A DNA stretch of 64,000 bases, taken from positions 25,556 to 89,555 of the forward strand of contig RWJK01001200.1 of the NCBI GenBank assembly GCA_004335835.1. The letters run 5' to 3'. A model generated the notes under the pieces. The model did no database searches. It had not been told where the DNA came from and saw only the letters and a program-made list of their open reading frames with translations. How positions within the stretch are numbered: position 1 is the stretch's first letter; every line of letters begins with the position of its first letter. This stretch comes from Scenedesmus sp. ARA3. Taxonomy: Eukaryota; Chlorophyta; Chlorophyceae; Sphaeropleales; Scenedesmaceae. The translations under genes and the position numbers were made by a program. This document shows positions 72 to 63,640 of the stretch, piece after piece.

Positions 72-1580
72 GGCGCATGACCTGGCACTGTTGCAGCCGG
101 TAGTGGTGCCCAGCACCAAGTTTGGGCTGCTGGAAAATGTGCTGTCGCACCTGGCCGCTGGCATTGACAGCAAGCGGCAGCTGGCGGTGGGGCTGGCCCG
201 GGGCCTGGCCTACACAATGGGCCCTGAGCACAGAAAAGACTTCATAGATCAGCTGCTTAGGTGAGGATGCCTTTGAGTTGACTGACAGCACGTGACTCAG
301 CCACTGTATGCATGATTTAGCAAAAGGCCTCGCCTACACGATGGACCCTGAGCACCGAAAAGAATTCTTAGATCAGCTGCTTACGTGAGGATGCGTTTAT
401 TGTAACTAGACAGCACGTGACTCAGCTACTATATGCATTATTTAGCAAAGGGCCTGGCCTACACAATAGGGCCTGAGCACAGAAAGGAGTTCTCAGATGA
501 GCTGCTCAGGCGATGATGATGACACCTTTGGTTGCTGTCTGACAACTGGTCTAACTGACACAACGTTACTCAGCCAGCGTACACATGATCCTGCAAAGGG
601 CTTTTCCAACTATCATGTTTTGTCTGACACGATGCGTTGCTGCTGTCATGCAGGCTTGCTGGCAGCGAGGTGGGCAGTGCTGACCTGCTGTCAGTGCCAG
701 CCTCAGATGACCCCCTAGCCTGCCTGCTGCAGCAGCAGCAGGACCCCGCTGACCTGGCTTTGCCCAACCCTGCGGCGCTTGACTACCTTGATCACCGGCT
801 GCTGGTGACGGATGATGTGCGGGCGCTGCTGGCAGTGCTGGCTCCATGGCTAGCAGGGCAGCAGCCATTCCTGCTGGTGAGCTTCATGATGCTGCCAGGA
901 GTGTTTACATCTGTCTGTTTGTGTCAGCACTTCTGACAGCTTGGGTTCTAGAGGGCTGTTGTGCACCGTCGGAAGAGGTAAGTAGTTCTCATAACTAGGC
1001 TGCTGGTGAAGGATGATGTGCGGGCGCTGCTGGCAGTGCTGGCTTACTGGCTGGCTGGGCAGCAGCTTTCCTACTGGTGAAACAACGCAATGATGTTCAT
1101 TGCTTGAACCTTGCGCTCATTTGTGCATCTGTTGTGGCTCATACTTTCTGAGGTGGTGCCAGCACCCAGATGTAGCTATCCTCTCTTTGTCATGCTGATC
1201 GGGACCTGACAGCTGGGAGTGGGATGCCGAAAGGCAACGCAAGCGCTTTCAGCCACAGATGTAACTGATGGCGGGCTGCTTTACATTGCTGCTGATATAC
1301 ATGCTGCGTATCAGTGTCTCATGCAAATTTTAAAGCATTGCTGCGCTGCTCGTACATGCTGCTGCTGCTGCTGCTGCAGGTGGGCCCCGAGGGCTGTGGC
1401 ATTTCCACACTGCTGGACTACTGCTTCGCGCAGCTGCCAGGCAGGGTCACTTGAAGTCAGTGAGAACTGCTGCTGCTGCTGCTGCCGCAGGTTGGCCCTG
1501 AGGGCTGTGGCAAGTCCACGCTGCTGAACTACTGCTTCACGCGGCTGCCAGGCAGGGTCACGTGAAGTCACTGAGCAATG

Positions 1581-1611
<31 letters not shown>

Positions 1612-1703
1612 AGGTTGGCCCCGCGGGCTGTGGCAAGTCCACGCTGCTGAACTACTGCTTTGCGCGGCTGCCAGGCAGGGTCGCATGAAGTCACTGAGCA
1701 ATG

Positions 1704-1746
<43 letters not shown>

Positions 1747-4700
1747 AGGTTGGCCCAGAGGGCTGCGGCAAGTCTACACTGCTGGACTACTGCTTCGCGT
1801 GTCTGCCAGGCAGGGTCACACTGGCCACGGTGCACTGCAGCGCGCAGACCAGCGCGGACACAGTCATACAGAAGCTGCTGCAGGTGAGCAGCTGCGTTGA
1901 ATCCTTATGAAATGTCACTGAATAAGGGCGTGCAGCACTGTTTTCGCTGGTGCGGTGCTGACTCCAGCATGCAAGCCATTCTGCAGTGACCAGGCCCAGC
2001 CTGTAGTAGCTGCAAATACAAGGCCGCTGATTGATATGTGATATCTCAAGCCGCCCTGTGGTGCATGGCGCAGGTGTGCGGCAAGCCAGTCACCACCAAC
2101 CAGGGCAAGTGCCTGCGGCCAGACGCAGGCCGCGTGATACTGTACCTCAAAGACATCAACCTGCCAAAGTTAGTACCACATTCAGTGTCAGTGTGTACAA
2201 GTGCACCAGTTGCGACTGGAATAGGCTCATTCAGCAGACATTTGGGGCCACATCTCAACCAGCATAGCCCTTGCAGTCAGCTCTACTGCTTGGAGCGCGC
2301 TACACAGACATGCATTACATTGCGTGCTTTCCTGCGTGTACAGGTCTGCATGGAATCAGTGGCCTCATCTGCTGCTGTGGTGTGCTGTGCTGCTGTGGTG
2401 GTCTGCTGTTCTGCTCTGGTGGTGCGCTGTGCTGCTGTGTTGTGTTGTGCTGCTCAGTGGCCTCACTGGCTGCTGTGGTGTGCTGCTTGCTGCAGGCCGG
2501 ACAAGTACCAGACGATGCAGGTGGTGGCGTTTGTGCAGCAGCTGCTCACGCATGGCGGCTACTATGATGAGCACCTGGAGTTCATACGCGTGGAGCGCGT
2601 GCAGGTAAGTGCACGTACGAAGAAGTTGCTCAAAAAACTACGTACCTTGCAGTAAACATCCTTCTCATTGAGCAGTCGCCATGCATGCACGGCCTCCATG
2701 TAACCTGTTGTGCTGTCACGCTTGTTGGCATACGTGACATAATTCATGAAGGCAATACTTCACCAGATCCACTGAATGAATTGATCGGCTCCTGCTGTCC
2801 CCGCTGCTGTAACCTGCCGCAGGTTGTTGCCAGCATGGTCCCCGGGAGCGCCGCAGGGCACAGCGTACTCAGCAAACGTTTCACCGCGCGCATGCGGCTA
2901 GCTGTGATGGGCTACCCTGATGCTCAGCAGCTGGAGGCAGTCTACACGCGCATGCTGCAGCAGGTGCGTTTGTATGTGAGGGTGTGCAATTAAGCAAGGA
3001 AAGCTAGGCTGAGCAGGTGTGGCTGACTGTGATGGGCTACCCTGAACCTCAGCAGCTGGAGGCAGTGTACACGCGTTGCTGCAGCAGGTGGGTTTGTAAC
3101 TGCGGATTTGGGGATGCATCTGGGCAACAGCTGTTTGCCTATGAAGCTGCAGTTGAGTTGCTGCACATGCATTTGAGCAAGTGCGGGTAGGCTGAGCAGG
3201 TGTGGCTGGCTGTGATGGGCTACCCTGAACCCCAGCAGCTGGAAGCAGTGTACACGCGCATGCTGCAGCAGGTGCGTGTCTGTTTTTGTTGTACAACACG
3301 CAGCTGTAAAGTGATTATGTAAACTGCTGAATCTGCCAAAAGGTTCATGTCAGTCCACTCACTGGCTGCGGTTGATGTGCTGTTGGGTTTTGTGCATGCA
3401 GGCGTTCGGCAGCAGCACTCAGAAGCAGGCCGCTGCGCTGGCAGGCCAGGCTGGCAGCTACGCACGCTGCCTGGTGCAGCTGTATCAGCAGGTGCAGGCG
3501 GCCTTTGGCAGCAGCTGTGGCAGCGGCGGCGGCAAGGTGCACTGCAGCTTCAACCCTAGGCACCTGACGTCGACTGTGCAGGGACTGCAGAGGTGAGATA
3601 GTCTGTGTGCATCACAAAGCACCAAAACCATGCAATGCGCAGTGACACAAAAACCATGTTCCAGGTGTGAGTACCTGTGCATTAAGCTTCATCATCAGTT
3701 TCTGTGTGCTGCTATGCCTCCACCAAGCTTCTGGCTGCCTTGTGTGCAACGTAACATCACATGTAAATAAAGTAACGTCATTGTTAAACATCTCTCTGGC
3801 TGCTTGCAGGTATGACCTGACCCAGGTTGATGTGGAGGCTGTCGCTGCTGAGGTGCTGGCCACCTTTGGCGGCTGCCTTGTGTGTGTCTGACGTAACACA
3901 ACGTAACATGATTTTAAATCTTCTGGCTGCCTACAGGTACGACCTGACCCAGGTTGATTTGGTGGAGGCTGTCGCTGCCGAGGCGCTGGCCACCTTTGGC
4001 GGCTGCCTTGTGCGTGCAATGTAACACAACATAACATGATTTGAATCTCGCTGGCTGCCTGCAGGTACGACCTGTCCCGAGTTGATGTGGTGGAGGCTGT
4101 TGCTGCTGAGGTGCTGGCCACCTCTCCGGCTGCCTTGTGTGTCTCTGACATAACATGACGTAACATTACTCAATCGAATCTCGCTTGCTGCCTGCAGGTA
4201 CGACCTGACCCGGGTTGATGTGGTGGAGGCTGTTGCTGCGGAGGTGTTGGCCACCTTCGGCGGCTGCCTTGTGCGTGTAATGTAACACAACATAGCATGA
4301 TTTTCAATCTCGCTGGCTGCCTGCAGGTACGACCTGTCTCAGGTTGATGTGGTGGAGGCCGTTGCTGCCGAGGTGCTGACCACCTTTGGCAGCTGCCCTG
4401 TGTGTCTCTGACGTAACATAACGTAACATTGCTTATGCAATTCTCTTTGGCTGCCTACAGGTATGACCTGTCCCAGGTTGATGCGGTGGAGGCTGTTGCT
4501 GCGGAGGCCCTGGCCACCTTTGGCGGCTGCCTGCCTGACGCAGCAGCACGGCAGCTGGAGGAGCTGCTGCTGGCTGCTCTCAGAAGCAGCCTGGGGTACA
4601 GAGGTGCGGATTTTGTTTCTCTTTAGGATCTGTGACCTTACCAGCAGCGCAGGAAATGCCTTCGCTGTAGAACACCTGTGATTTGATGCCAAGTGTAGCA

Positions 4701-7700
4701 TCCTGGAGCTTATGGTAAGCTGAACTCATCATGCACAGCAAAATCCAAGGCGATCAGTGTGAAGTAACACATACATGGATTCCTTTGCTGCTGCAGGTGG
4801 CCTGCCGTCTGGGCAGCTCTTCAGCAGCCTCGCGCTCTCCCCAGAGGCCCGCGCTGCTGCCGCTGCTGCCGACAGCCCTGTGCCCCTCAGCAGGCTCAGC
4901 CTGGATGATGCTGGTGGGCTGGCAGCTGGTGCGCTGCGCAGCTTCAGCCGAGAGGTGGCTGACACACCGCTGCTGCTGGTGCCACAGGTGCGGGCGGCAT
5001 AGAGATAGGGGGTCATATTGGTGTGAGCATGCATGCATCTCAGCAGGCTCAGCCTGGATGATGCTGGCGGGCTGGCGGCTGGCTTTCTGCGCAGCTTTAC
5101 CAGGGAGGTGGCAGACACGCCGCTGCTGCTGGTGCCACAGGTATTGGTTTGAGCTGAGTCGAGGGGCATGGCTATGCACAAAATGTCATAATGCAGCTAG
5201 ACTGCCCCAACAGCTTTCCCCTTGCTGGCACAATACGTGTGTACAGGGTGCATACCAGTGCCCGTCGGCAGCTCAAATCACGATGTGGCCTTTTTGTTCC
5301 ACCTGAGCTGTGTGAATATTATACCTTATCGTCTTGCCCCTGCACTTTGATGCACAGCATCATGCAGGCTCTGGATTGCATTGCAGCGCTGGACCCTTGC
5401 CTGTCACTGCCTGTGGTCAGCGCTTTCTGCTTCACCTAACCTATGTGAATCAACCTACCCTGCCCCGTCTTGCTGCTGCGGTGATGCACCACACAGGCTC
5501 TGGAGCGCATCGCAGCGCTTGACCGCTGCCTGTCCGTGCCGTCCGGGGCGGTGCTGCTAGTAGGCCCTGCCGGCAGCGGCCGCCGCAGCCTGGCGCACCT
5601 GGTGGCGCATGCGCATGGCATGACTTGGTGCAGCCCCCGCATTAGCAGGTGCGGTTGTTTGTAGGGTGATTAATGACTAGTCTACTGAACAGTGCAGGCT
5701 ACTGTCTGCTTCTGTGAAGCTTGTTCATACTCTGCTTCCTGTGTCATGCACATGGCATGGCCTGGTGCAGCCCCCGCATTAGCAGGTGGGTGTGATGCTA
5801 CATTGGGACGCCTGCAGACTAAATGGCGACGGCCGCTGCTAGTGCTGTGTGTCTGCGTTGACCCACCTGCTCCTGCGGTGATATTTGCTGTGGCTGTTCG
5901 TATGCATATGCATGCCCTTGCATGAATGCGTTGTTTTTCATCTCACCCTGCTACCTGTCCCAAGCACGCTGAACATTGGCTGTTGCTGCAGGCGCTTTGA
6001 TGCTGCTGCCTTCCGCTCGGAGCTGAAGGAGGTGCTGCGGGCAGCAGGCGTTGAAGGCACCCCGCTGCTGCTCTTCCTAGAAGAGCGGCACCTGGCTGAT
6101 GACCCAGGTAGGCGGGGTTATCTGTGCTTCGTTACATGAGCCTGCTGTCATTATAATCCTGCTGCAGCTGAGTGTTTTACAGCATACAGCTGCACGATTT
6201 TGATCTAGCTTTGAGGGCACCCGGCTGCTGCTGTGCCTGGAGGAGAGGAACCTGCCTGTTGACCCAGGTGGGTGGCAATTTTAAATGCTTAATCAATGAT
6301 CTCTGTTATGTTGTCACATATGTCAAGGTTCCATTGTCACAATGTTCAGGATGATGCTGTCACCAGCGTAACATAGCAGCAGCTGCTGCTTGCTGTTCTT
6401 ACTTTGGCAATTACACATTAAAATGCCAGCATGTGGTGAAATACTGGCGAACTTCCCCTGCTGCTGCTGCCAGGTCTGCTGGAGCTGCTGAACTGCCTGC
6501 TGTCTGTGAGCGAGGTGCCTGGCCTTTGTAATGCCTTGTTGACTTTGGCTGCCTCAGCTGACTCCACAACTATGTGCTGACAAACCATCATGCTGACACG
6601 CTGATGGCGCTTTCCCCTGCTGTATTTTGGCCAGGTGTGCTGGAGCTGCTGAACTGCCTGCTGTCTGCTGGCGAGGTGCCTGGCCTGTTTGGGCCTTGTA
6701 CTTCTGTATCAGGCCTGATGGTCTTGCACTGCTGACTCTTGTAACTATGCACTGACCTGCCGATAAACTTGACCTGCTGCCTGCTGCTGCTAGGTGTGCT
6801 GGAGCTGCTCAACTGCCTGCTGTCAGCTGGTGAGGTGCCTGGCCTGTTTGGGCCTGATGAGCTGGCCAAGGACATGGCAGCACTGGAGGCAAAGCGCGCG
6901 GCAGACAGCCACTACCAGGTAAGCTGCTTTATAATGGTGTGGCTGCTTATGTCACATATAGAATGATGGTTGACGAAACAGTTGCTGCCAGGAGATGACG
7001 CTTGCTGCTTGCTGTTGATTGACTGTGCACGCCTAGGTTTACAATCTGGCGATACGATAAGGGGCTCGTGAAGCAGTCATGCATACTTCCGCACCCACCT
7101 GCGCCGCCACCTGCAGAGTTGATGCTACTCAACCAGGACGACGTGCCTGCGTTTGACGTGTTCTATGTTTGAATCGCCCACAGAACCCGCCACGTAGCTG
7201 CGCCTACTTCCAGGCGCACCTGCGCTGCCGCCTGCAAGGCAGATGCCCATCACACACTAGAACAAGCCTATGTTTGGACCATCTCATGTGTTGTCCTGCT
7301 TTTTAAATCCACGCAGGGCCCACCCAGCAATTATGCCTACTTCCTCTCCCTGCTGCGCCGCAACCTGCGCATCACCATCGCCCTGGACCCCGCTGCTGAG
7401 GGTTTTGCAGCGCGGCTGGAGCAGAACCCTGCGCTGGTCAACCGCTGCAGCCTGCTGAGCTGGCAGGGCTGGAGCGATGCCAGCCTTACTGCAATCGCAC
7501 AGGGCAGGCTGCAGGTAAGCAGGAGCAGCAATTTTGTTATTCTGTGAGAGGTGGCTAGAGTGTGCTGCCATGCCAGAGCAGCCACAACGTGTGTCACGCA
7601 TGCACCCCAGATAGCTTGTTAGCCGGGTAAAGCATATATGTTTACTAGCCTACCATGGTGGCATTTGGACTAGCAAAGTGTGTGGGGGTCAAGGTNNNNN

Positions 7701-10135
7701 NNNNNNNNNNNNNNNNNNNNNNNNNNNNNNNNNNNNNNNNNNNNNNNNNNNNNNNNNNNNNNNNNNNNNNNNNNNNNNNNNNNNNNNNNNNNNNNNNNNN
7801 NNNNNNNNNNNNNNNNNNNNNNNNNNNNNNNNNNNNNNGAGGTGGCAGGGCTGGAGCGATGCCAGCCTGACAGCGATTGCACAGGGCAGGCTGCAGGTGA
7901 GCAGGACCAGCGGTTTTGCTGTGTTTGGTGGGGCTTATGCACGGGAACTGTCATGCCAGAACAGCCGCACGGTTATGTGCTTATTACAGCACTGGGTGGC
8001 GCAGACGCTAACTTAAAATAGCATGAACCACTACAAGCCGAATGTCTGCAGCAACTCCTGGTCTGCTGTTTCCCTGCAGGATGTGCTTTCAAACCTGGCA
8101 TGCTCTGAGCCAGAGCGTGCTGAGCTGCTGGCGCTGCTGCTGAAGCTGCACAACTCGGCAGCAGCTCAGCTGGGCGCTGCGCCTCGCCACTTCATGGCAG
8201 CGGCTGATCTGTACAGGGCCACCATCAGCAGCAAGCGGGAGCAGCTGCTGCAGCAGCAGCAGTTCCTCAAGGTGTGTGCTGCACAGCCTGTGTTTGCTGT
8301 TATGCATGCTGTGTTGCGTCCAAGCTTTCAGCAGCTGCTGGTAGTGAAAGGGTGGTTAATGCTAGCTCAGCATGCACATGTGCATCACAAGATATGGTCG
8401 CTGAGGATCAAGAGCACGGAGCGTCGGTCAATGAAGCAGTCGCAGCCCATCAATTTCTTGCATACTGCATCCATTGGGACAGTCCTGCTTGGCCCAGGTG
8501 ACCTGCGTTGACAACCTCTTGCACAACAACAACACATACACGTGTTGCTTGCCTGCCGTCACATCTGCCTCTTGCTCCCACCTCACCCAGGACCACACAG
8601 TGCGGCTTCAACCGCTTGGCTGAGGCAGCCGGCACAGTGGACGAGCTGAGCAAGCAGGCATAATTTACTGAAACGATCAACATATCTTCTCTGCTTTCTG
8701 CCTCTGCCCACTTCATGTGTAGGGTGGCCTCGACAGGCTGGCTGAGGCAGCCGGCGCACTGGATGAGCTAAGCCAGCGGACATATCTCATGTATCGTTCA
8801 ACACATACATCAACGGCTTCTGTCTGCCTCCTCCTCTCTCGCATGCAGGGTGGCCTTGACAGGCTGGCTGAGGCAGCCGGCACAGTGAACGAGCTCAGTC
8901 AGCAGGCAGAGGCGCAGCGCACTCTGCTGGCAGCAAAGCAGGGCGAGGCTGATGCGGCTCTTGGCAACATACAGGTGAGGCAGCGCCGCATAGACGTGCC
9001 GAGAAGGATCACACCAGTGTACCTTGTGCACTGAAAACTACTGGACTATAGGGGCAGTGTTGCAGCCAGTAGCTGCTGCTCTCGCGATTGTATCCTGTGG
9101 TGTGCAACTGCGATGGTAAACTTGCAATCATGATTGGAGCGCTCTTGCGCCAACCATCACAAGTCAAAAGAATGTGTATGTGTCTTCCCGTGCTGCAGTC
9201 GTCCATGGAGGTTGCTGCTGACAGGCGGCTTGAGGTGGAGCAGCTGGGGCAGCAGCTGGGCGAGACAGAGGTGGCGCTGCAGCAGCGGCGAGGTGGGTAT
9301 CTGGGAAAATGCAAAGTGACAGATTTAGGCATGGTAAATGCACAACTGCGCACCTGCAAGCAATGTTGGACCAGAAGGCCCCCTGCCCGAAGGCTCCTGG
9401 TGCTTCTTTGGGCTTCTTGGATGCACTTGAAGGCCTGCGCGCATGCTGCCATTCCCTGCTGCAACATCTGAGCTGAACAACTGCTGAAATTGTAATGTTC
9501 TGGCAGCAGCCTTCGATCGCGCAGACAAGCTGAGATGGTGCCACTGTTGCATGGTGCTGTGCTATCATTGGCATGCGCGCAGGTGATGTCGAGGCACAGC
9601 TGGCGGAGGTGCAGCCCCTCAACTGCTGCAGCTGCTGTGTTGCCATGCAAGCCAAGGCATGATCACACAAACCAGAGACATGATAATGGTGTTCGTCCAA
9701 TGCGCTGCTGCTGCTGGTGTGATGTATGCTGCTTGTGTGTATTTGCAGGCGGCGTGGAGGCGCAGCTGGCTGAGGTGCAGCCGCTGATTGATGCTGCACG
9801 CACTGCGGTGGGAGGAATCAAGGCAGACCACATCAACGAGGTGCGCTGAGCAGTCTTATTGAAGAACACATCCATTGTGTGCAGCTCGTGCGTGCGCTCA
9901 AAAGTGCCAACATATGCAGTCAACTTCTGGCTCATGGCGCCATCTGCAACGTGCTGGAGGGTGTGCTGCTGCTGCTGCTCATGAAATCTGTTGCTGCTGA
10001 TGCTGCCGCTGTCAAATGCCTTTCTTTGACTGCAGGTGCGCAGCCTGCGCATGGCGCCTGACGTAATCCGGGTTGTGTTGGGAGGGCGTGCTGCTGCTGA
10101 TGGGCCAGGAGGACACCAGCTGGTCTCACTGCTGT

Positions 10136-10170
<35 letters not shown>

Positions 10171-11039
10171 CAGGTCCGCAGCCTGCGCATGGCCCCAGAC
10201 GTCATTCGGGATGTGCTGGAGGGTGTGCTGCTGCTGATGGGCCAGGAGGACACCAGCTGGGCTGCCATGAAGGCCTTCCTGGGCAAGCGCAGCGTGAAAG
10301 AAGATATTGTGAACTACGACGCGCACAGGTGGGCAGAGGATTCTGTGGCATTTCTATTGGGCAGTGCAGTAGATGTACCTGTTGCCGCATGATGAGTGCA
10401 GCGCAGTGTGAAGCAGGACATTGTCAACTACGACGCACACAAATGCCGCATGATGAGTGCAGCGCAGTGTGAAGGAGGACATTGTCAACTACGATGCACA
10501 CAGGTGGGTAGGCAGTACAAAGGGCACGGAGAGCCTGATTGCGCACAACAGAGCAAACCATGATGTCCGCACAAATGCTTACTTGGTCATGTAGTGAGCA
10601 TATATATAATGTGCATTGTGCCGCTGCAGGATCCTGGCCACCCCTGGGCTGCGGGCCAAGCTGGACAAGCTCATGGCTGCCAAGGGGGCCTCAATCATCA
10701 TTATAAGCTATGGATCGAGCAACTGGCTGTCACTGATTGGCTCTGCTGCCTGCCGCTGCAGGATCCTGGCCACTCCCGGGCTGCGGGCCAAGCTGGACAA
10801 GCTCATGGCTGCCAAGGGAGCCTCTTTTGAGCGGGAGGTGGCCTACAGGGCCAGCCAGGCTGCAGGTGCGGTGGGCTGGGCAGCGCGTGGTTGTACACAC
10901 TTGCAGCATCTAAGCTACAGCAGCTGCTGCAGCTTAAACGTGCTGGAGGCATGCACGTGACGCATGCAGCTGGCGGCGCCAAGCCGCAAAAGCAGAAGTC
11001 ACATCCCAGAGAATCAACGCATGTGCGCTCACACTAGCA

Positions 11040-11132
<93 letters not shown>

Positions 11133-14100
11133 GACTGCAGGCCCCATGGCTGTGTGGGTGTCTGCCAACATGGCTTACAGCGAGGTGCTGAAGCAGACCG
11201 CACCCCTTGAGAAGGAGCTGGCTGCACTCAACAGCAGCCTGGCAGACAGCCAGGCACGGCTGGGGACCTGCCAGCAGGAGCTGCAGCAGCTGGACGAGCA
11301 GGTGTGTGCATTTGGATTTGTTTGAGACATTGCAAGTCAGAAGTCTTACGCATCGGAAGCAGGCAAGCCAAAAATCATGCCACTAGACCAAGCTCCCGCC
11401 CGAACGGGTCGCGCTGGGTCTGCGTATCCAGTGCAAAGGGTGCTGTGCCTGATACATCGGCACTTGCTTTCCTCAGCTGTGTTTGCATCCAGAGTGCGGT
11501 GCTTGACAGAACGGGACTCACATTTCTGAACCGGCACACAATCCATACATCGACTACGGGAGCTGCTGCTCTTGTGCCGTCGCCTCAAATCCCTCCCGCT
11601 GCATTTGCTGTGCGGGTGGTGCGGCTCCCACGTGCTCTGCTTGGATTCGTGCGTCTTGGCTGAGCATATTGTGTAAAACATGTCATCATGTTGCCGCCTA
11701 ATCTCTTCTGCTGCGCTTGCTGAGCAGGTGGTGCGGCTCAAGTCCGACTTCCAGGCGCGCATTCGGGAGGCGGAGGCGCTCAAGCTGCAGCTGGCGCGCG
11801 CTGAGGGCACTGTGAATGCAGCCTCAGGTGCGCATAGCTGCTGCGATAGTTTGACGCCAAAAAGCGCGCCGGTGCGCGGGCAGATTGTTATACGCAGCAT
11901 TACTAGTACTATGCATACAGCCCCGCTGCTGAACAGAATGAACCAGACTGCATTGCATGCCAGCATCTGCCTTGGGCTTGGTTGGTGTTGTCGGTGAGCT
12001 AATCAAGCCTTTTTCAGGCATCCATCGGTGTTCTTACTCCTTGAATTGGTTACATGGGTGCTGCTTCATTGCTTTGACGTCCCCTGCAGACCTGCTGTCC
12101 AAGCTCTCAGGGGAGCGCAGCCGCTGGGGCCAGCAGCTGGCAGCGCTGGACGGCCAGCTGCAGCAGCTGCCCCGCGCTGCACTGGCTGCTGCTGTGTTCA
12201 TAACGTATCTGCCTGCACATCCTGAGGATGTGCGGGAGCGAGTCATGCAAGGGTGGACCAGGTGCGTGATGTGACTGCTGCTGATGTACATGTGCAGGTC
12301 ATGCCTTGCAAGCTTGGCCTGTGTCGTTACATCAGCCTAGAGTGCTTCATCAGCACTATACAATTGTATCTAGCTTTTCCATAATCCTTGCATGCTGCTG
12401 CTGCTGATGCTCTTGTTTCTGTGCAGCCTTCTTTCCCTGCCCCCCAGCTTCAGCCTGGGCTCCTTCATGAGCACTGAGTCTGCTCAGCTGAAGTGGCAGG
12501 GCCTGCGCCTGCCCAGCAACCCTCTGACATTCTCCTCAGCCCCTCTCACTGTGCTGCTGATCCTCTCCACATGCGGGGGCTCCTGCACATCTTCAGTTAT
12601 CTATAGCTTGTTTCTAACTCTCACGTGTTGCTGCTACTGCTGCTGCTGCTGGTGCTGCTATTTCTATGCACAGCCTACTATCTTTACCCCCCAGTTTCAG
12701 CCTGGGCTCCTTCATGAGCAGCGAGGCTGCCCAGCTGACGTGGCAGGGCCAGGGCCTGCCCAGCGACGACCTGAGCGGGCAGAATGCACTGGCGATTCTG
12801 CATGGCGTGATGACGCCGCTCGTGATCGACCCCTCCTCGCAGGTGTGTTTCTTTGTGTGCAATCACCTCCCAACAACGCAAAGTTTGCCGCGGTGTTATT
12901 TGTGTATGCTGCGCAATGCCTTGCGCGTTCAGCTGTGCAGCAACTGCTATGCTGCAAGGCAGATTTCTGTCGGCACACATGTAGGTTTGTGCTGACTAGC
13001 AGCGCTGCTTAGGACAGTGTGCATGCTGTGTGGCCATGCTCTTTTGCAATTTGCTCTTGCTGCAGGCCATCGAGTGGCTCAAGGCGCATGTAAAGGCTGC
13101 CGGCCAGGCCCCCGAGGTGCTGCCACAGCACGACCTGCACTTCCAGAACAGCCTGGAGCTGGCTGTGCGCTTCGGCAAGGTGAGCTGGGGCCCGACCTCT
13201 GGTCCTGCCACACAAATATGTTTTTAGTCTTTGTGCACATGGGCATTGCAATGCAGCAGCTACTTCCAAAACAGCTTGGAGCTGCGGCCTGGCACAGGTA
13301 GTCCGGTGCAGCACAAGTGATCAGGTCAAAAGCTTCAGGCATTTAGCTGCTGCAACTCAGCAGCTGCTTGCAGAACAGCCTGGAGCTGGCAATGCGCTTT
13401 GGCTAGGTGAGCTGGGTCTGGCCTACTTCAGTGATTGTGGGCCAGTAAGGCAGCACTGAAGGGCTCAAGCCCTAGGCCTTGTGCACAGCAGCGGCTGCGC
13501 TGCAATCAGCTGAGCAAAGCTGAGCAAAGCAGCCTGCCAGGGTGCTCAGTGACGTTGCAATTCAGAGTTTTGCATTGGCATAACTAGAGAGTAGGCCTAG
13601 GCAACGCCCCACCCAGCACCATGGAGTATAGCTGCTGGTTCTTCTCCAGTTGAGGGTGCTTTGACAATGCTGCCGCTTGCTCTGTGGACTGATGCCATCT
13701 GACGCGGACTGCCGCAGGTGCTGGTCGTGTCTGAAGTGGACAGGGTGCACCCCATCCTGCACCCACTGCTGCGCGGTGACATCCAGAAGCAGGGCGGCAG
13801 GCTGGTGAGATCAGCATGGCTTTGATGTTGCTGAATGCAGTGATGTAGTTGCCAGCAACCTGTCTAGCCTGTATTGCACTCCACGCTGCTGGCAAGTAGG
13901 TCTGTTAGTGATCCTAGGCCTGATGTCAGCCTGTCGTCTATTTCAATGCAAGCCAGCACACACGCCCCAGAGCTGCAGTCAGAATCATAAGTAATTGCAT
14001 GGTTTGCATAGTTCAACCTTTTAAAAATGTGAACAAACATGTATGCTGCAGGTGGTGCCTGTTGGTGACAAGCTTGTGGACCACAACGCATCCTTCAAGC

Positions 14101-17100
14101 TGTACCTGGTCACGCGCAATGCCAGCCCGGCGCTGAGCCCCGACGTGCTGCCGCTGCTGACAGTGACCAACTTCAGCATCACGCGCAGCGGCCTGGAGAG
14201 TGAGTGACCCTCTGGACTGGCTGACAACCGGCTGTGATGTGCAGAATGCAGATGCAGCTCTTGTTGCTGGTCCTGTCTGCAGTGTGTACTCGTGCTGAAG
14301 TTCCGCAACATGCAAAGAGGTCCATGCCTCGTGTGGCACTTCATTACTCCCAAATCACCTTGGATTTGGGATCTCCTGCCCCTGTGATCAACTTGATGTT
14401 CAGTAGCAGGTGTCGTTAGGTGTAATTATCAGGGCCCAAGCAAAGTTGTTTGTCGCTGTCTTGCCGCCCTGCAGGCCAGCTGCTGAGCCTCACGCTGCAG
14501 CACGAGCAGCCGGAGCTGGAGTCCCGAAAGGCCGCGCTGCTTGCTTCAGAAGCAGGGCTCAAGCTGCAGTTGGCTGGGCTAGAAAAGCAGCTGCTGCAGG
14601 CGCTGGCTACCAGCAAGTGAGTTGGATGACTACACATGTAGACATATGCTGCAGCCTGTGAGCTGGCAAGTGTCAGCAACTGTGTCAGCACGCCTCCTTC
14701 TTGTGTAAAGAACAGCTTTGGTGAGCCAACAGCACCGTTCAGTAGAGTTGTAGAATATTTGGTAAGGCTGCGCTGCTTGCTTCAGAGGCAGGGCTAAAGC
14801 TGCAGCTGGCTGGGCTAGAAAAGCAGCTGCTGCAAGCGCTGGCCACCAGCAAGTGGGTTGTTTGCAACTATGACATGAAGCGTGTAGCCTGCAAGCTGGC
14901 ATATGTTGACTCGATTCCAACAGCGCATCAATGTACATGTACTCAACCTGTTGTGGCTCGTACCATGCAAGATGGTGCCAGGACCCACATGTAACAATCC
15001 TCTCTCATGTACAGATGTTAATCAGGTTGCACCAACTGCATGAGCCAAAGGATCATGTTGAACACGCTGTGTGATTGGCTGACGTGCGGCTGCGTGGCTC
15101 GCTGCGTGTGCAGGGGCAATCTGCTGGAGGACACTGCGCTGCTGACGTCACTGAACGACACAAAGTCGCAAGCCTCCAGTGTGGCAGCGGCACTGCAGGA
15201 CGGCCAGACGCTGGCAGCACAGCTGGATGAGCAGCGCAGCGCATACAGGTGTGTGCCTGTCACGGCTATCTTTAACAAATGCCTGCAGTGCGGCACACAT
15301 GTACATGTGGCCTTGCAGTGAATGCCCAACGACAGCATTGTGTGCTTGTGCTTGTGCTGATAGCTACTCTGAAACAAGCACACCCCTCTGGCAACAAAGA
15401 ACCCAAGTCACCCCAGCCTTCAGCAGATCGCTGCATTCTTTGTGCAGGCGACGTGACTCGCTTCGTGGCTGACTGCACATGCCTTCTTGTACTGCGTCCC
15501 TGCTGCACTGCATGTCACTCACAGATCTTGCTGTGCAACTGTGCTGTTGTGCTGCAGGCCGCTGGCAGCGCGTGGCAGCCTGCTGTACTTCACGCTGGTG
15601 CAGCTGCGGCAGCTGGACCCCATGTACTGCTTCAGCCTCAACGTGAGTGGGAAACATTGTTTTGCAGCCGACGCGACTTAGGCAGTTGTGTCGCAAGTAG
15701 CGCTTTGGCAGTGACAAACCAACACAGAGCCGTTGGCAAACCAGACATGTGGTTTTACCTTGTAGCGTGCACCACTATGATATATAAGAAAGAATTTAGA
15801 CACCCACCGAGTCCTGAGTACCACGTTGGATGCGTAACTGCGCGTATTGCTCTGCGCTGTTCTTGCATTGCCTGTTTGCCTCCGCAGGCGTTCCTGAAGC
15901 TGTTCAAGCAGCTGCTGCGCTGGGCAGCTCAAGCAGCCGGCCCTGCCAGCAAAGCAAACAGCAGCAGCAGCAGCAGCAGCAGCAGCCAGGCAGATGCTCT
16001 GGCTCGCAATGCGCTGCTATGTGACAAACTGTTAGAGTTGGTGCATGCATCTGTCAGCAGGGCAGTGTTCAACAAGGACCAGCTGACACTAGCAGTGCAT
16101 GTAGCTCGCAGCTTGCTGCCAGATCAGTTCCCGGCAGACGAATGGGCCGTCTTCCTGAGCTGCAGCAGCACTGGCAGCAGCAGTGGTACAGCTGCTGCAG
16201 CCGGCAGGCCTGGCTCTGCCACAGCAGCAGCAGGTGCTGGTGCTGCTGCTGTGCCGAGCTGGGTACGGGGCGACAGGGCTGCTGCTTTTGAGCAGCTTGC
16301 AGCAGCGCTGCCAAACCTTGTGGCTGCCGCGCAGCTGCATGATGCTCGCATTTGGGCACCTTGGGCAGCTGCAGTGGCAGGCGTAGCAGCTGGCAGCAGC
16401 AGCAGCAGTTTGGAGTTTGTGCCTGCTGCTGCTGCTGGGCGGCTGACCGGGCTGCAGCAACTGATCCTGGTGGCTGCACTCAAGCCCGAAAGGTGGGTAA
16501 TGAAGCACTCGTGTTCTATTATCATCCCACCTATGCGTGCTGCTGGGCAGCTTGGCAATGTGCCCTGCCCTGCTTTGCCGACCACATTGTATGAACTGCA
16601 GCCAGGTACTTGCTATGGATATCCCGCAAGCTGCTGACAGGTTGCCTGCTGCCCACTGCACGTTGCTGCACAATGTGCATCTACCTGCACAGCCTATCTG
16701 CTGCAGCTGGCAAGCTAGCATGCCAGCTGCTGCACCTGCCTGCGCTCGCGCCAGCGCCTCTCAGCATGAGGCAGCTGCTGGAGGCACAGGATGCCGGCAG
16801 CAGCAGCAGCAGCAGCAGCAGGGAGCCTGTGCTATTCATCACCACTCCGGGTGCTGATCCCAGCCAGGAGCTGGCTGCCTTTGCTGAGGGCCAGGTGCGG
16901 GCACAAACTGTAATTGTCACGTTGAGGAACATACTCCATTCAAAAATTTTGAAGTGATCAGCAGCCAAAAAATTTGAAGTGATCAGCAGCCACCTTCTCA
17001 CAGGATGACAGCAGCGCCTTGAGCAGCTTTGTAAATGCATCTACTTGTTGACGATGTGTGAAAGCCAACTAGATGCTCTGCTGAACCATACGACTTTGAG

Positions 17101-17152
17101 GTTATGCCAGTAAGCTACTGCCGCTCAGGGGTCTCACTGCTGCTGCTGTCAC

Positions 17153-17186
<34 letters not shown>

Positions 17187-19069: not shown

Positions 19070-19102
<33 letters not shown>

Positions 19103-19129
19103 CGGCCGCAGCGCTTCAGGCCGCCGGCC

Positions 19130-19161
<32 letters not shown>

Positions 19162-45934: not shown

Positions 45935-46987
45935 AGGCCATTGATGCTGGGCTGGAGGCTTTTGCGGCAAAGCAGTACAGCCAGGCCATTGACCTGTTCA
46001 ACCTGGCCCTGGAGCTGCCTGGCAACGGTGAGCCTCTAAGTACCAGCTAAGGCTTTGTTGTTGTTGACTAGACTTGGACATTGATGTGGCTGTCACTGTA
46101 GACCTTTGCTGTTTACAGCAGGGTAGTCAGACCTGTTCAACCTGGCCCTGGAGCTGCCGGGCAACGGTGAGGGGATGAGTGTCTGTTGGTGCTAGCTAGA
46201 ACAGGTCGTCACTGCTGTTGTGACGAAGCTGCCTGTCTGTCACAGGAACTTCCCCAACCCGATCTTGGAGCTGCCAGGCAATGGCGACTGCATGATTGCA
46301 GCATTGCAGCAGCTGCGGTTGTGGTGTTGCTGGCAAGAACATGCCGCTGATGCAATTATGCCACAGCCTTCACTTAGCTGCGTTGACTGGCCCGCTTGCG
46401 TCCTGCAGCTCTGTGCAGGTGCGTACCAGCTGTCTGGCTGTCCTCGTGAGTACGTGCGTGCCCCACTTTCGGCCTCTTACATGGCTCCACCTTGCTCACT
46501 GCTCTGCCTTTCTGCTTCTGCTGTGTGTGTCTGTGCAGGTGCATACCGGCTGTCTGGCAGTCCCCGCGAGTACGCCTGCCCCAGCGATGCAGAGGAGCAT
46601 GCGGCGCTGTACAACATGGCTTGCTGTTACGCGCAGCTGGGGCAAAAGGCGGCGGCGCTGACCTGCATTGAGTCGATCCTGGAGACAGGTATGATACGCT
46701 GGCTGTTGGTGCTTCTTATAGGTTGCTGTGGCAGCGGACTTGTTCTGTTGTGATATAGGCTGGAAGGGCAGCATGTACAGCTATGCGCAGCTGGGGCAGA
46801 AAGCAGCGGCGCTGACCTGCATTGAGTCCATCCTGGAGACAGGTGCGTTATCACAGAAGTAACAACATATGGCAGACTAGGTTTGATGTGGCAGCGGGTC
46901 TCTTGTGCAGCCTTTGCTGGCTCACCTGGAGTGCATCCTGCAGACAGGCCTGCCATGTTAAAACACATATAACTTACGAAGCGCAAC

Positions 46988-49847: not shown

Positions 49848-52800
49848 GGCAGCAGCAGGGGCCGTCGGCAATACCGCAGGAGCTGCTGCTGCCGCATGAG
49901 CTGCAGCATGCGGGCAGCTTGCGCATGCACCGCAGCAGCACAGCGCTGCACTACAGCAGAGACCCTGAGCTGCTGCCGTTTGAACTCAACATGCTGGAGG
50001 CTGCACTAGGTGAGTCTTAAGTGTGCACGGTGCTTGACCTCGTGCAGGACAGTGGATAGCCCCAGCACACGCTGTGTTGCAAGAGTAGCTGTGAGTGTTG
50101 CACAGCAGGGCTCTGTTCAATTCTGGTTCTGCCGTACGTTCCATCTTGCCACCCTGCTATAGACGCTGCTTCTGTGCGGCCTGCTGCTGCTGCTGCTGCT
50201 GCCAGGCGAGATCACGCGCCACTACTCCTCGCAAACAGCCACGCTAGAGAGCCTGGCGCACCCCGCGCTTGATGCGCTGATGCGCAAGTGCAACAGCACC
50301 AACCTGGAGCGGGTGCGCAAGATCAAGACACAGCACCAGCGGCTGCTGGGGCGCTGCCAGGTGCGTTGTTACGTAACGTTACATTGGGTCACATACTCCA
50401 CTCAGACAAGGAGTGGGAACCCAAATCAGGAGCCAGCGAGAGGCTTATAGGGGGAGAAAACACCAAAGAACAGTTCAACAGGATGGTTCTTGGATGGTGT
50501 GTTGAATGGTGCAAGGGTATGGTGTTGCAATGCTGTGTGTGATGGTATGCTTGCTTGGGAGTTTCTCTTACAGGAGATGCCAGGCACGCCAGTCACTCGC
50601 AGCATTGCAGTTGATATGTTAGGCAGGTCATACTGTAGTGAGAGGTCTGCATTCCTTTTGTTAAGTTGCTCCGCAGAACTTTGTAATGTAGTTGAGCCTG
50701 GGGTGTCGCATAATGTGTTACATCATTGTTATTTTCCTGTCACTTTCAGGGTCTGCGCGAGATCCTGGAGCGCTACATGGAGGACGACCAGGACATGTAC
50801 CGCATGTGCCTCAGCAAGTGGCGGGACGCTGAGCTGGAGAATGCGGATGCGGGCAGCGACAACACGCTGCTCATAGGTGGGCATGATGGCATTGTATGTT
50901 AGAATGTCCTTGTGTATCAGATATTTGTAGTTCAAGCTGGTGAATGCAGACGCGGGCAGCGGCAACACGCTGCTCATAGGTGCGGATCATGGCAATACAT
51001 CTTTCAGTGGCCTGTGTATCAGACGTGTGTAGTTCAAGCTGGAGAATGCAGACGCAATCAGCGACATCACGCTGCTCATAGGTGCGGTTTGTATGGCACA
51101 CATTTGCTGCATCATGTGCTGTGGTGATGTTTGGTTCAGGCAAGTGAATGCAGACGCGGGCAGCACAACACACTGTTCATAGGTGGGGATCATGGCAGTA
51201 CATCTTCGAGTGACCTGTATATCAGATGGATGTAGTTCACGCTGGGAAATGCAGACGCGGGCAGCGACATCACGCTGCTTATAGGTGCGGTTATATGGCA
51301 CACATTGGGTAGATCATGTGCTTTGGCTATGTATGGCTCAGGGAGGTGGATGCAGACGCGGGCAGCGACAAACACGCTGCGCACAGTTGCGGCTCATGGC
51401 AGTACATCTTCGAGTGACCTGTGTATCAGATGGATGTAGTTCACGCTGGAGAATGCAGGCGCGGGCAGCGACAACACACTGCTCATCGGTGCGTGGTATG
51501 GCATGCGACAGGGTCATCGTGCTTTGGCTATGTATGGTTTGAGGGGGTGAATGCGGGCACAGGAAGCAAAAACACTCTGTAGTTAGTATATTTGGGCGCA
51601 AGGGGTGTTAAGGGTTTATGCTAACATATTATGTGCATCAAACACGTGCGGGTCACAGACTCGTGCTTGTGCTGTGCATTCTGGTGCTCGCGGCAACAGA
51701 GCTGTGCACTGTGTGCCGTACTGTGTGATTCGTCAACCTTCTGGCTGCAAGCTGCTCATAATCGGCTGCACACTGCTGCTGCTGCTGCCACTGCTGCTGC
51801 TGCCAGGCCGGCGAGAGACCATGGGCTGGGGCGGCGGCGCACTGCCGCGCCGCGCGACAGTGGCCAACCTGGCACGCAGCCCCACAGGCATGATGGAACG
51901 CTTCCAGGTGAGGCTTAGGGTGGGAACAATCATGGAACGGTTTGGAAGGCCATAGTGGCCAACCTGGCACGCAGCCCCACTGGCATGATGGAACGCTTCC
52001 ATGTGAGGGATAACATCAGGGTTTGGGGTTTTTACATGGCCAGCAGGTGGCTGCGTAGGCTGTAGACACTCAGCAACAGGGGGTCATTCCTGTGGCTGCT
52101 GCTTGGCCTTTTCTTTCCCCACAGCATGCTGCAGATGCTGCGGCTGTGGCTGCCTGTTTTGTAACGACAACATGTCATGCACTTTGTTGCGCAGGGCATG
52201 TCGTACGGCGGGCGCGTGCGCGGCGGTGACGGCAGCAGCAGCTCCTCCAGCAGTAGCAGCAGCAGCAGCCGCTCCACCAACGAGCATGACCTGCTGGAAG
52301 TAGAAAACCTGCTGGAGTCCTACCTGATGATGGTGGACGGCACGCTGGCCAAGCTGGCAGGTGCGGCCTGGGGTTTTTACTGGGGTTTGACTTTGGTTTG
52401 ACTGGGGTGTTACTTGGGTTATCATCTACCCTGTTGGAGGTGGAAAACCTGCTAGAGAGCTACCTCAAGGTGGTGGACGGCACGCTGGCCAAGCTGGCAG
52501 GTGCGGCCTGGGGTTTTGACTGGGCTTTGACCGTTGAGTCCATAGACGCCAAGGAGGAGTACATCAACATTTAACCGGATGGCAGCTGCTCTTGGCTGCA
52601 TCTCAACACTCGTGACGTAACACCATATTGACACACTCACGTTGCCTGTCTGTCTGTCATAACACTCTCTTGTCCCTCTCTTGTAACAAAGGCATCGGCG
52701 AGTACATTCACGACACCGACTACATCAACATTGAGCTGGACTACAACCGCAACCGGCTGCTGCACCGCAAGCCTAAGCATAACACCAAATATAACACGTG

Positions 52801-62778: not shown

Positions 62779-62795
62779 AGTCAGCACTCTGTGGC

Positions 62796-62829
<34 letters not shown>

Positions 62830-63267
62830 GCGTCGAGTGCACGGACGCAGCAGCTGGTGGCAGCTTTGGCAGCAGCAATGAGGATCTAGGGGCTGCGTGG
62901 CAGAGGCACGTGGACCTGCGGCTGCTGCACATGACCGTAATCAGCTTCTTCCTGCTCAACACGCTCAGCAAGCAGCAGATCGCACAGGTGCGGCGCACAT
63001 GACACAAATAACACACATGTAACACTTGTGACACATGTAGCGCAGATAACGGTGGTCAGCTTCTTCCTGCTCAACACGCTCAGCAAGCAGCGGATCGCAC
63101 AGGTGCGGCGCACATGACACAAATAAAACGCATGTAACACTTGTATGACATGTTGTGCACATGTAATGCACATGGTAGTGATCAGCCTCTCCCTGCTCAA
63201 CACACTCAGCAAGCAGCAGATTGCACAGGTGCGGCATGGGCTGCATGTCTGCTTCTCACTGCTTGTC

Positions 63268-63302
<35 letters not shown>

Positions 63303-63640
63303 AGATGATCGTTGCGTCCTTTCCTGTACAGGTCATCTGTGCCGCAGTAGTGGAGGCGGCAGCAGACCTCTGCCGGCAGCAGGAGCAGCAGCAGCACTCG
63401 CTGCTGCAGCAGCAGCTGCTGCAGGACCCTCCTGATGATCTAGGAGTGGCAGAGCAACCAACAGCAGCAGCAGCAGCAGCTGTAGCTGAGCAGCAGCGTG
63501 GCACAGCCGCTAGGCTGTTGACTAACCCGGGTCACCAAATGCAGCACAGCCGTGTGCGGCAGACTGCCATGCAGCAGCAGGTGCGTGCGTGGTGGCGTGC
63601 AATGGGCGCCGAACCGCCAGACTTACCGGAGACGCAATGA
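59798..63640 (+). CDS. Unrecognised protein with poly-Gln, poly-Ala and helical regions, 613 aa
   Basis: Exons 59798-59974, 60139-60165 (27 nt), 60784-61098, 61790-62138, 62350-62987 and 63305-63640; phases close. The N-terminus is basic (SSKQKASRKSSVKPLKTKPG). Helical segments follow (KKMHRQVLRQACQLSLEERS, ELVVYALQHGL, YVAVMLRRVSPEQLQQVRDW). After a poly-Gln run (61856-61898) come EHLVDDAMTKFAVGMIFNCR and HWKRVARRLKLTQEQLLLL, then poly-Ala, then LLHMTVISFFLLNTLSKQQI. The basic N-terminus and Gln-rich helices would suit a transcription-related protein, but I see no bZIP, Myb or other named domain and assign no function. The 27-nt exon is the least certain call. Confidence 0.65.
61229..61462 (+). 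repeat. 45-bp x5 minisatellite encoding a 15-aa unit and carrying a splice donor
   Basis: Five near-identical units start at 61241, 61286, 61331, 61376 and 61421 and read in frame as SQADRSLEDWLMTQV. The end of each unit (AATGACGCAG|GTGAGCCAG) matches 19 bases across the real donor of exon 60784-61098. The array lies in the following intron, right after a short TTGA repeat (61216-61236). Confidence 0.9.
61512..61616 (+). repeat. 13-bp tandem repeat, about 8 units (TGACTTGATGTAA)
   Basis: Perfect or near-perfect tandem units in the same intron as the 45-bp array. Each unit contains a TGTAA pentamer, the algal poly(A) motif. Confidence 0.9.
61856..61898 (+). repeat. CAG run coding poly-Gln (~14 residues)
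   Basis: Uninterrupted CAG on the sense strand within exon 61790-62138, following an acidic stretch (DDEEEE). Alanine-coding GCA/GCT runs follow at 61930-61965, 62538-62570 and 62728-62780. Confidence 0.9.
63050..63235 (+). repeat. Two downstream copies of exon 62350-62987 end
   Basis: The exon end ISFFLLNTLSKQQIAQ plus GTGCGG donor recurs at about 63053-63105 and 63177-63230. Both retain the frame within the copy and a donor, and are separated by ACACAAATAACACATGTAACACTTG-like intron sequence. Confidence 0.85.

What the first reader, a model, noticed from the sequence alone, without database searches (positions are those of the whole stretch)
72..63305. Window-wide tandem duplication of splice junctions creating arrays of decoy exons
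In seven of the eight multi-exon genes, on both strands, introns contain tandem partial copies of the adjacent exon plus its splice site. By eye I count about 26 donor-side and 20 acceptor-side junctions affected. Geometry is uniform: donor-side copies are 5'-truncated and lie after the full exon; acceptor-side copies are 3'-truncated and lie before it. That is what a tandem duplication straddling an exon-intron boundary must give. Copies range from near identical to barely recognisable, so the process looks continuous. It lengthens introns, and it demands that splicing consistently use the outermost site of each array, since that alone yields the family-like protein. I know of tandem-duplication models for intron gain, but not of a genome where existing junctions are amplified at this density.
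Basis: partly seen in the sequence, partly recalled or inferred. Interest (0 to 1): 0.9.

Follow-up and report, generated by a model that had tools for sequence, protein, structure and literature searches.

The report
Splice-junction copies crowd algal introns
In this green alga, half of the introns in the two genes checked most closely contain leftover copies of the end of the neighbouring exon with its splice site, which go with longer introns and offer the splicing machinery a choice of look-alike junctions.

Summary
The window comes from Tetradesmus obliquus or a very close relative. In two homology-checked genes (dynein-2 heavy chain, acyl-CoA oxidase) 16 of 52 donor and 16 of 52 acceptor edges have a copy in their own intron, against 0 of 5204 comparisons with other introns. 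46 of 48 copies reach the exon boundary; in 6 of 6 introns with both kinds, donor copies come first. Copy-bearing introns are longer (median 451 against 246 bp). Known proteins require the outermost site; using a copy would shift the frame or add a stop in 42 of 46 cases. Copies decay without regard to the protein. Elsewhere, 18 of 172 predicted introns carry copies, so the density here is locally high. In 21 of 46 no flank homology was detected although the exon part is 78-96% identical. Neutral tandem duplication does not readily give that: either introns decay unusually fast, or something copies or refreshes exon sequence only. No RNA or read data were available.

The parts
97..21707 (+). 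Cytoplasmic dynein-2 heavy chain gene (3' part; 39 curated exons, gene starts upstream of the window)
   Evidence: tblastn with P0121/P0122, GHMM, splice consensus
33327..40877 (+). Acyl-CoA oxidase gene, 15 curated exons
   Evidence: spliced model 694/697 identical to P0001
326..509 (+). two donor-side copies of exon 97-260 (326-383, 450-509), intronic flank homologous
998..1076 (+). donor-side copy of exon 654-876, no flank homology
1380..1685 (+). three acceptor-side copies of exon 1749-1883 (1380-1450, 1491-1561, 1614-1685); the first reads GIST where the exon has the P-loop GKST
3018..3271 (+). two donor-side copies of exon 2823-2963 (3018-3087, 3201-3271)
3810..4397 (+). five acceptor-side copies of exon 4461-4603 in a ~130-bp-period array with homologous flanks
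5039..5140 (+). donor-side copy of exon 4797-4987, no flank homology
5368..5411 (+). acceptor-side copy of exon 5497-5648
5745..5785 (+). donor-side copy of exon 5497-5648, no flank homology
6208..6267 (+). donor-side copy of exon 5992-6107, no flank homology
6474..6696 (+). two acceptor-side copies of exon 6794-6918 (6474-6525, 6635-6696)
7072..7114 (+). acceptor-side copy of exon 7317-7514 (AG lost)
7839..7896 (+). donor-side copy of exon 7317-7514, directly after the N run 7696-7838
8723..8777 (+). acceptor-side copy of exon 8849-8974
9588..9619 (+). acceptor-side copy of exon 9749-9840
10036..10126 (+). acceptor-side copy of exon 10174-10328
10400..10503 (+). two donor-side copies of exon 10174-10328 (10400-10441, 10461-10503)
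10630..10692 (+). acceptor-side copy of exon 10762-10865, 95% identical, flank similarity ends after ~11 bp
12427..12520 (+). acceptor-side copy of exon 12674-12842
13367..13406 (+). donor-side copy of exon 13066-13179
14764..14852 (+). donor-side copy of exon 14475-14616
17875..17977 (+). donor-side copy of exon 17609-17778, 95% identical
20692..21207 (+). three donor-side copies of exon 20196-20600 (20692-20810, 20956-21065, 21144-21207)
34140..34314 (+). two acceptor-side copies of ACOX exon 34371-34484 (34140-34185, 34252-34314)
34473..34801 (+). 22-bp tandem repeats that each carry the donor site of exon 34371-34484 (interrupted by N run 34601-34734)
35051..35082 (+). donor-side copy of exon 34371-34484
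35275..35316 (+). acceptor-side copy of exon 35384-35477 (AG lost)
36714..36763 (+). acceptor-side copy of exon 36841-36958
37017..37059 (+). donor-side copy of exon 36841-36958 (donor GT lost)
37910..38001 (+). acceptor-side copy of exon 38076-38304, no flank homology
39342..39389 (+). acceptor-side copy of exon 39477-39624
39699..39764 (+). donor-side copy of exon 39477-39624 (one-column gap against the exon)
39910..39966 (+). acceptor-side copy of exon 39996-40162
40275..40621 (+). two donor-side copies of exon 39996-40162 (40275-40391, 40515-40621), no flank homology
46130..46166 (+). donor-side copy in the TPR-like gene, 97% identical over 37 bp, no flank homology
46419..46465 (+). acceptor-side copy in the TPR-like gene
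51954..52001 (+). donor-side copy in the MRS2-like gene, 98% identical over 48 bp, no flank homology
52430..52763 (+). donor-side (52430-52500) and acceptor-side (52692-52763) copies in one MRS2-like intron
27004..27471 (-). minus-strand gene: donor-side copy 27378-27471 (96% over 94 bp, no flank homology), weaker copies read by eye further on, and acceptor-side copy 27004-27064 of the array 26636-27083
30158..30214 (-). donor-side copy, minus-strand gene
31822..31864 (-). acceptor-side copy, minus-strand gene

Best explanation
In Tetradesmus obliquus, or a very close relative, short stretches of DNA that cross an exon-intron junction are repeatedly duplicated in place. The extra copy carries an exon edge plus its splice site and falls inside the intron, after a donor or before an acceptor. 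It is tolerated because splicing at the outermost junction still yields the normal protein. The copies are not protein-coding exons. They persist as spliced-out look-alike junctions, lose coding sense and, in most cases, splice-site strength with time, and make introns longer. Shown: the location, the geometry, specificity to the own intron, the association with longer introns, protein-level decay, and homologous flanks in about half of the copies. Inferred: that birth is by tandem duplication; that survival is filtered by the outermost site staying in use; that the copies cause the extra length; and that some exon-anchored process, fast intron turnover or exon-templated refreshing, removed flank homology from the other half.
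For: Own-intron edge copies 32/104 against 0/5204 in other introns. 46/48 copies reach the boundary. Donor copies precede acceptor copies in 6/6 introns that hold both. Introns with copies 26/52, median 451 against 246 bp, p=9e-8. 21/46 copies, at 14/32 junctions, have intronic flanks homologous beyond +6, including the five-copy array at 3810-4397. At amino-acid differences a relative agrees with the exon in 73, with the copy in 13 and with neither in 28; 39 changes fall on residues conserved in both relatives. Copy donor sites are weaker than real ones (7.6 and 5.2 against 9.9 bits; random GT -3.2); copy acceptors average 0.7 without flank homology but 10.3 with it, against 10.0 for real sites. 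Using a copy gives a frameshift or stop in 42/46. Nearest copies lie 85-175 bp away in 22/32. Published mean intron length of T. obliquus is 462 bp against 230-302 bp in three other Sphaeropleales and Chlamydomonas (PMC5966456 Table 1, passages seen).
Against: 21/46 copies lack detectable flank homology, with a step from 0.92 identity in the last 10 exon bases of donor copies to control level by +11; the step recurs in 15/39 copies of other predicted genes. Under neutral decay at 0.06-0.10 per branch none of 60 simulated flanks scored <=2, against 20/46 observed. Indels: 1 in 932 exon-part columns, 25 in 1094 flank columns, where a neutral copy predicts about 11 in the exon part. No junction-independent intron duplications were found (random expectation 27%). 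Codon positions 55:32:137 (one copy per junction) depart from the 1:1:2 of a neutral copy, p=0.0004. No RNA evidence.
Confidence: 0.68

Rival explanations
1. Exon-limited copying or refreshing. After (or instead of) tandem duplication, copies are overwritten from the real exon, by ectopic gene conversion anchored in the constrained exon or by spliced RNA/cDNA acting as template, so that similarity ends at the exon boundary while introns drift freely.
For: Homology stops at the junction in 21/46 and in 15/39 copies of other predicted genes, although exon parts are about 89% identical on average and up to 98%. In these copies the first three intron bases match their parent's no better than other junctions' sites (donors 0.79 against 0.80). 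Adjacent copies differ at 113/983 exon-part columns but 250/769 flank columns, over 14 pairs.
Against: No copy examined runs on into the next exon, as a spliced template might. Some copies retain 12-25 bp of flank. Flankless copies have the more decayed splice sites, as if simply older. Codon patterns differ little between classes: S/N Fisher p=0.018 over all copies, no difference with one copy per junction.
Confidence: 0.3
2. The copies are selected splicing elements (decoy junctions) that regulate intron removal, which is why their exon part and splice consensus outlast the flanks.
For: 38/46 copies keep GT or AG. Donor sites of copies without flank homology average 5.2 bits, which corresponds to about 0.15 substitutions per site although their flanks look far more diverged. 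Indels are depleted in exon parts.
Against: Acceptors without flank homology are near background (0.7 against -1.8 bits for random AG). Gaps and changes at conserved residues are tolerated. Very uneven between genes, 0/16 and 0/18 in two long ones.
Confidence: 0.15
3. Unequal exchange between diverged alleles: the duplicate comes from another haplotype whose exons are similar but whose introns are not.
For: Would give junction-limited homology, a synonymous excess and undetectable intron-only duplications; third-position excess 86:51:209 over all 48 copies.
Against: No second version of the ACOX gene or of the one dynein stretch searched was found in the assembly. Needs introns that evolve far faster than synonymous sites.
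Confidence: 0.12
4. Assembly artefact: two haplotypes or homeologues concatenated in introns.
For: Draft assembly with gaps; one copy (7839) adjoins an N run.
Against: Concatenated alleles predict acceptor copy before donor copy; the reverse holds in 6/6. Multi-copy arrays at about 10-18% divergence. Copies have decayed at conserved residues. Single locus in the searches made. Only 1 of 46 copies adjoins a gap.
Confidence: 0.06
5. Ordinary alternative or duplicated exons.
For: Four of 46 copies, all acceptor-side, would keep the frame open; the gene finder picks some as micro-exons.
Against: Copies lack the far end of the exon. P0001 and the relatives' proteins hold each stretch once. 42/46 would shift the frame or introduce a stop.
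Confidence: 0.04

Closest known systems
Tandem genomic duplication across an intron-exon boundary, potato RdRp gene (PMC4974935; abstract, introduction and results section read)
   Same: A tandem duplication crosses a splice junction and inherits its splicing signals; the 3' splice site and pyrimidine tract come from the parental intron.
   Different: One event that created a new, used intron. Here dozens of copies that, by the homologues, create no new intron; they stay inside the old intron.
Rogers/Hellsten intron gain by exonic AGGT duplication (as described in the PMC4974935 introduction and PMC3443670 passages)
   Same: Local direct duplication with splice signals, protein unchanged.
   Different: There the duplicated segment is exonic and the new intron lies between the two AGGT sites. 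Here pre-existing junctions are amplified.
Introners (PMC9860276; search listing and two passages seen; 'Tetradesmus' and 'Scenedesmus' have no occurrence in its main text)
   Same: Mass alteration of introns, reported there mainly in fast-evolving lineages such as green algae.
   Different: Introners are dispersed similar introns. Two copy-bearing stretches searched here gave no dispersed family: one matched itself and a neighbouring copy, the other itself, a neighbouring copy and one 58-bp hit elsewhere.
Decoy exons that promote intron retention in vertebrates (search listing only; details recalled)
   Same: Look-alike splice sites inside an intron.
   Different: Those are individual regulatory exons; here they are degenerate copies of the neighbouring exon edge, with no test of function.

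Membership tests
Tandem duplication straddling a splice junction | Copy next to its source, direct orientation, containing exon edge plus splice site | tested here: met
   46/48 copies reach the boundary; GT or AG kept in 38/46; 0/5204 in other introns; reverse-complement control 1/104
Tandem duplication straddling a splice junction | Both exon and intron parts of the unit duplicated | tested here: inconclusive
   Flank homologous in 21/46, not detected in 21/46, intermediate in 4
Intron gain by tandem duplication (Rogers type) | New intron lies between two duplicated AGGT sites | tested here: not met
   Copies lie inside introns next to their own junction, donor copies before acceptor copies in 6/6
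Intron gain by tandem duplication (Rogers type) | Intron absent from relatives | not tested
   only relatives' proteins were available, not their genes
Introners | Similar intron sequence at many unrelated loci | tested here: not met
   Two copy-bearing stretches searched in the whole genome gave no dispersed family; the other copy-bearing introns were not searched
Tandem exon duplication / mutually exclusive exons | Complete exon copies with both splice sites | tested here: not met
   Copies are truncated on the side away from the shared junction
Regulatory decoy exons | Affect intron retention | not testable with these tools
   no RNA data
Assembly artefact | Copies vanish with long reads | not testable with these tools
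   indirect evidence against

The most novel reading that the evidence does not exclude
Exon edges are copied into, or refreshed inside, introns by an exon-limited process whose template ends at the splice junction, for example spliced RNA/cDNA-templated repair or exon-anchored gene conversion. This would give a lineage in which introns are continually seeded with fresh pseudo-junctions, leaving a running record of exon-to-intron sequence transfer.
Probability: 0.2. Interest if true: 0.85.

Novelty: new variant of a known kind. Interest (0 to 1): 0.62.

Why it matters
It offers a concrete, testable reason why T. obliquus introns are longer on average than those of related algae. It shows a genome where junction-crossing duplications are common enough to study birth, decay and splice-site choice statistically instead of one case at a time. 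Each array is a natural competition experiment between near-identical splice sites. The exon-limited class would, if confirmed, point to a copying route that the intron-gain models named in the papers seen here do not describe.

Tried and rejected
Haplotype-bubble misassembly was the most serious mundane idea, because it predicts junction-limited homology and synonymous differences. It was set aside on order (6/6 donor copies first), absence of a second gene version in two searches and decay at conserved residues. Coding constraint on the copies: the third-position excess 86:51:209 first suggested it, but copy-copy differences also show one (31:26:56), relatives side with the exon (73 to 13), and the third-position share does not differ between flank classes with one copy per junction (51 of 84 against 86 of 140). 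'Flankless copies are simply older' is not fully rejected: their exon parts are no more diverged (0.114 against 0.111), but their splice sites are more decayed (donors at about 0.15, acceptors at about 0.25-0.30 substitutions per site in the decay simulation), and at 0.25 per branch 38% of simulated flanks score <=2. The self-trained gene finder drifted to micro-exons over iterations and its models were not used for the two curated genes; exons were set by homology. A phase mismatch line for dynein exon 30 to 31 and 15 stops in the naively joined dynein frame were left; each exon's frame was set separately. Literature: ten searches; nothing in their listings reports junction-copy arrays in this genus or elsewhere. 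The library holds open-licence papers only, and I saw titles and abstract openings except where stated. The third protein search (MRS2) gave relatives, but that gene was not curated further.
Full report
Setting. The window is a 64-kb stretch of contig C861 in an 87.3-Mb, 1567-contig genome, 54-60% G+C. A spliced acyl-CoA oxidase (ACOX) model from the window is identical at 694 of 697 residues to P0001, which its source labels Tetradesmus obliquus. The organism is therefore that green alga or a very close relative. The gene at 97-21707 is cytoplasmic dynein-2 heavy chain (P0121, 87% identical over 67% of the query, Scenedesmus sp. NREL 46B-D3). Its upstream part lies in L009 (assigned from AAA1-type motifs, recalled). 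Other genes: a YqeY-like gene, a TPR-like gene, an MRS2-like magnesium transporter and an LRR-like gene on the plus strand, and nucleoporin-like genes on the minus strand. Apart from MRS2 these names are my reading of the translations and were not searched.

Are the repeats there? Self-blastn found 77 direct repeats within 3 kb, none inverted within 3 kb, and one distant direct repeat. There are 43 clusters covering 15.9 kb.

Do they sit on splice junctions? I fixed exon models for two genes by homology, to P0121 and P0122 for dynein and to P0001 and P0003 for ACOX: 39 and 15 exons, 52 introns. P0122 is labelled a transcript; P0001 may be a gene prediction. For each exon edge (up to 120 bp) I looked for a copy in the adjoining intron against 100 dinucleotide shuffles. 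16/52 donor edges and 16/52 acceptor edges qualify; the reverse complement qualifies once in 104. With one score threshold for all comparisons, the own intron again gave 32/104 and non-adjacent introns 0/5204. Wrong-side comparisons gave 21 hits in 100; their matched ranges show that all are correct-side copies seen again because the 120-bp windows overlap in short exons. Iterating over secondary copies gives 48, of which 46 reach the exon boundary within 12 bp; the other two were dropped from the flank and site analyses. In the six introns with copies of both neighbours, the donor copies come first in all six. No local duplication independent of a junction array was found inside the 52 introns at E<1e-3 after removing CAG/CTG-rich matches. 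A placement model predicts 27% of such events, so none among 32 has P=4e-5 if intron-only repeats are equally detectable, 0.004 if half as detectable and 0.06 if a quarter.

Consequences. Introns with copies are longer, median 451 (26 introns) against 246 bp (26 introns), Mann-Whitney p=9e-8. Published mean intron length is 462 bp in T. obliquus UTEX393 against 230, 302 and 284 bp in three other Sphaeropleales and 270 in Chlamydomonas (PMC5966456, Table 1, passages seen). That the copies contribute to this difference is inference. Splicing into a copy would cause a frameshift or in-frame stop in 42 of 46 cases, and P0001 and the relatives' proteins hold each stretch once, so the outermost site is the one that gives the known protein. 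No transcript of this species was examined.

How do the copies evolve? Over 48 copies and 3158 aligned columns there are 346 differences: 86, 51 and 209 at codon positions 1, 2 and 3; 207 synonymous, 137 missense, 2 stop; 11 gap events. One copy per junction (32) gives 55:32:137, which departs from the 1:1:2 of a neutral copy and a constrained exon (p=0.0004). Differences between adjacent copies also lean to third positions (31:26:56, 14 pairs), which suggests higher mutability there, so constraint is not required, but it is not excluded. At amino-acid differences the nearest relative sides with the exon in 73, with the copy in 13 and with neither in 28. 39 changes fall on residues conserved in both relatives; one copy of the dynein P-loop reads GIST instead of GKST. 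The copies are therefore not held to the protein. Copy donor sites average 7.6 bits (7 with flank homology) and 5.2 (15 without or intermediate) against 9.9 for real and -3.2 for random GT sites. Copy acceptors average 10.3 (14) and 0.7 (10) against 10.0 and -1.8. GT or AG is kept in 38/46.

The difficulty. If a unit of exon plus intron is duplicated in tandem and one copy decays neutrally, the intronic flanks should stay recognisable about as long as the exon part does. 21 of 46 copies, at 14 of 32 junctions, show flank homology beyond +6 (p<0.02 against flanks of other loci; in 5 of them over only 12-25 bp), 21 show none (p>0.1) and 4 lie between. The banded extension test can miss homology broken by large indels: the array at 20692-21207 scores as flankless there but has a strong unanchored match (z 23.9), so 21 is an upper figure. 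In flankless donor copies (13) identity is 0.92 in the last 10 exon bases, equals the control from other junctions at +1..+3 (0.79 against 0.80), and is 0.28-0.29 from +11 (control 0.24-0.30). Flankless acceptor copies (8) go from 0.75 in the exon to 0.28 by +7. The exon parts are equally diverged (0.111 in 13 copies with flank scores of 14 or more, 0.114 in copies with scores of 5 or less). In simulation (60 flanks per rate), 0.06-0.10 substitutions per branch never gave scores <=2; 0.15 gave 7% and 0.25 gave 38%; 20/46 observed copies do. Against my reading, the splice sites of these copies have decayed by about 0.15 (donors) to 0.25-0.30 (acceptors), so part of the class may simply be old. 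Among clearly tandem copies, indels are 1 in 932 exon-part columns and 25 in 1094 flank columns; a neutral copy predicts about 11 in the exon part, P=3e-4. Repeat-rich flanks may inflate the flank figure. In independent predicted genes the same step appears in 15 of 39 copies, while 18 have flank scores of 10 or more and 6 lie between. So either intron sequence turns over far faster than the copies, or something copies or refreshes exon sequence up to the junction. I could not separate ectopic conversion, spliced-RNA templates, exchange between diverged alleles and selection on the copies.

How general is it? In 22 genes predicted in 16 of the 10-kb stretches elsewhere, 18 of 172 introns carry copies, with 2 of 2802 control hits in non-adjacent introns; in L009 (same dynein gene) 9/17 with 1/480; in the other window genes 10/48 with 2/2348. 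Of the 42 edge hits behind these counts, 39 are anchored at the boundary and 3 are not. These models are predictions without homology check, and I judge three of the twelve window hits doubtful. The load is uneven: 27/55 for dynein with L009, 8/14 for ACOX and 18/172 for the rest, p=6e-11 (note that the first two rest on curated models or the same gene). The window has 6.7 clusters per 10 kb against 2.6 on average in 20 stretches. Those stretches were not a random sample: they lie on contigs that had matched an earlier query or on the window's own contig, and one (L009) belongs to the same gene.

Artefact? Concatenated haplotypes would predict acceptor copy before donor copy, a second gene version and no decay. 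The opposite was seen in each respect. One of 46 copies adjoins a gap. Reads were not available, so this stays open at low probability.

Known parallels. A single tandem duplication across an intron-exon boundary made a new intron in potato (PMC4974935; abstract, introduction and results read). A review calls tandem genomic duplication the one intron-gain mechanism shown in vivo (PMC3443670, passages seen). Here, by the homologues, no new intron is made; existing junctions are amplified in place. Introners do not fit the two stretches searched. Nothing in the listings of ten literature searches describes such arrays, within an open-licence library.

Verdict. I rate it a new variant of a known kind, with an exon-limited process as the bolder reading.

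Noticed in passing
window 1129-1186 and 14936-15009: A 58-74-bp element in two copy-bearing dynein introns, downstream of the donor-side copies, has at least 40 relatives across the genome at 81-95% identity (lower bound); possibly a small mobile element.
   Followed up: no
window 28284-28435: A 21-bp repeat, 7 near-identical units, inside an open frame of the minus strand, encoding a repeated heptad (QLHDEVR).
   Followed up: no
window 26196-26330 (-), 58551-58622 and 58868-58939 (+): By eye, the end of the minus-strand nucleoporin-like frame recurs in inverted orientation about 32 kb away, where it is itself locally duplicated.
   Followed up: no
window 23433-23654 and 25165-25422: Two related segments about 71% identical, 1.7 kb apart; looks like a tandem gene duplicate.
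   Followed up: no
window-wide: Acceptor sites are often preceded by (CTG)n tracts ending in CTGCAG, so the pyrimidine tract is largely a trinucleotide repeat.
   Followed up: partly
window 61234-61615: Satellites of 45 bp (5 units) and 13 bp (8 units) side by side.
   Followed up: no
L013, L017, L023: Predicted genes with 16, 18 and 13 introns and no junction copies, in contrast to dynein-2; the unevenness between genes is unexplained.
   Followed up: partly
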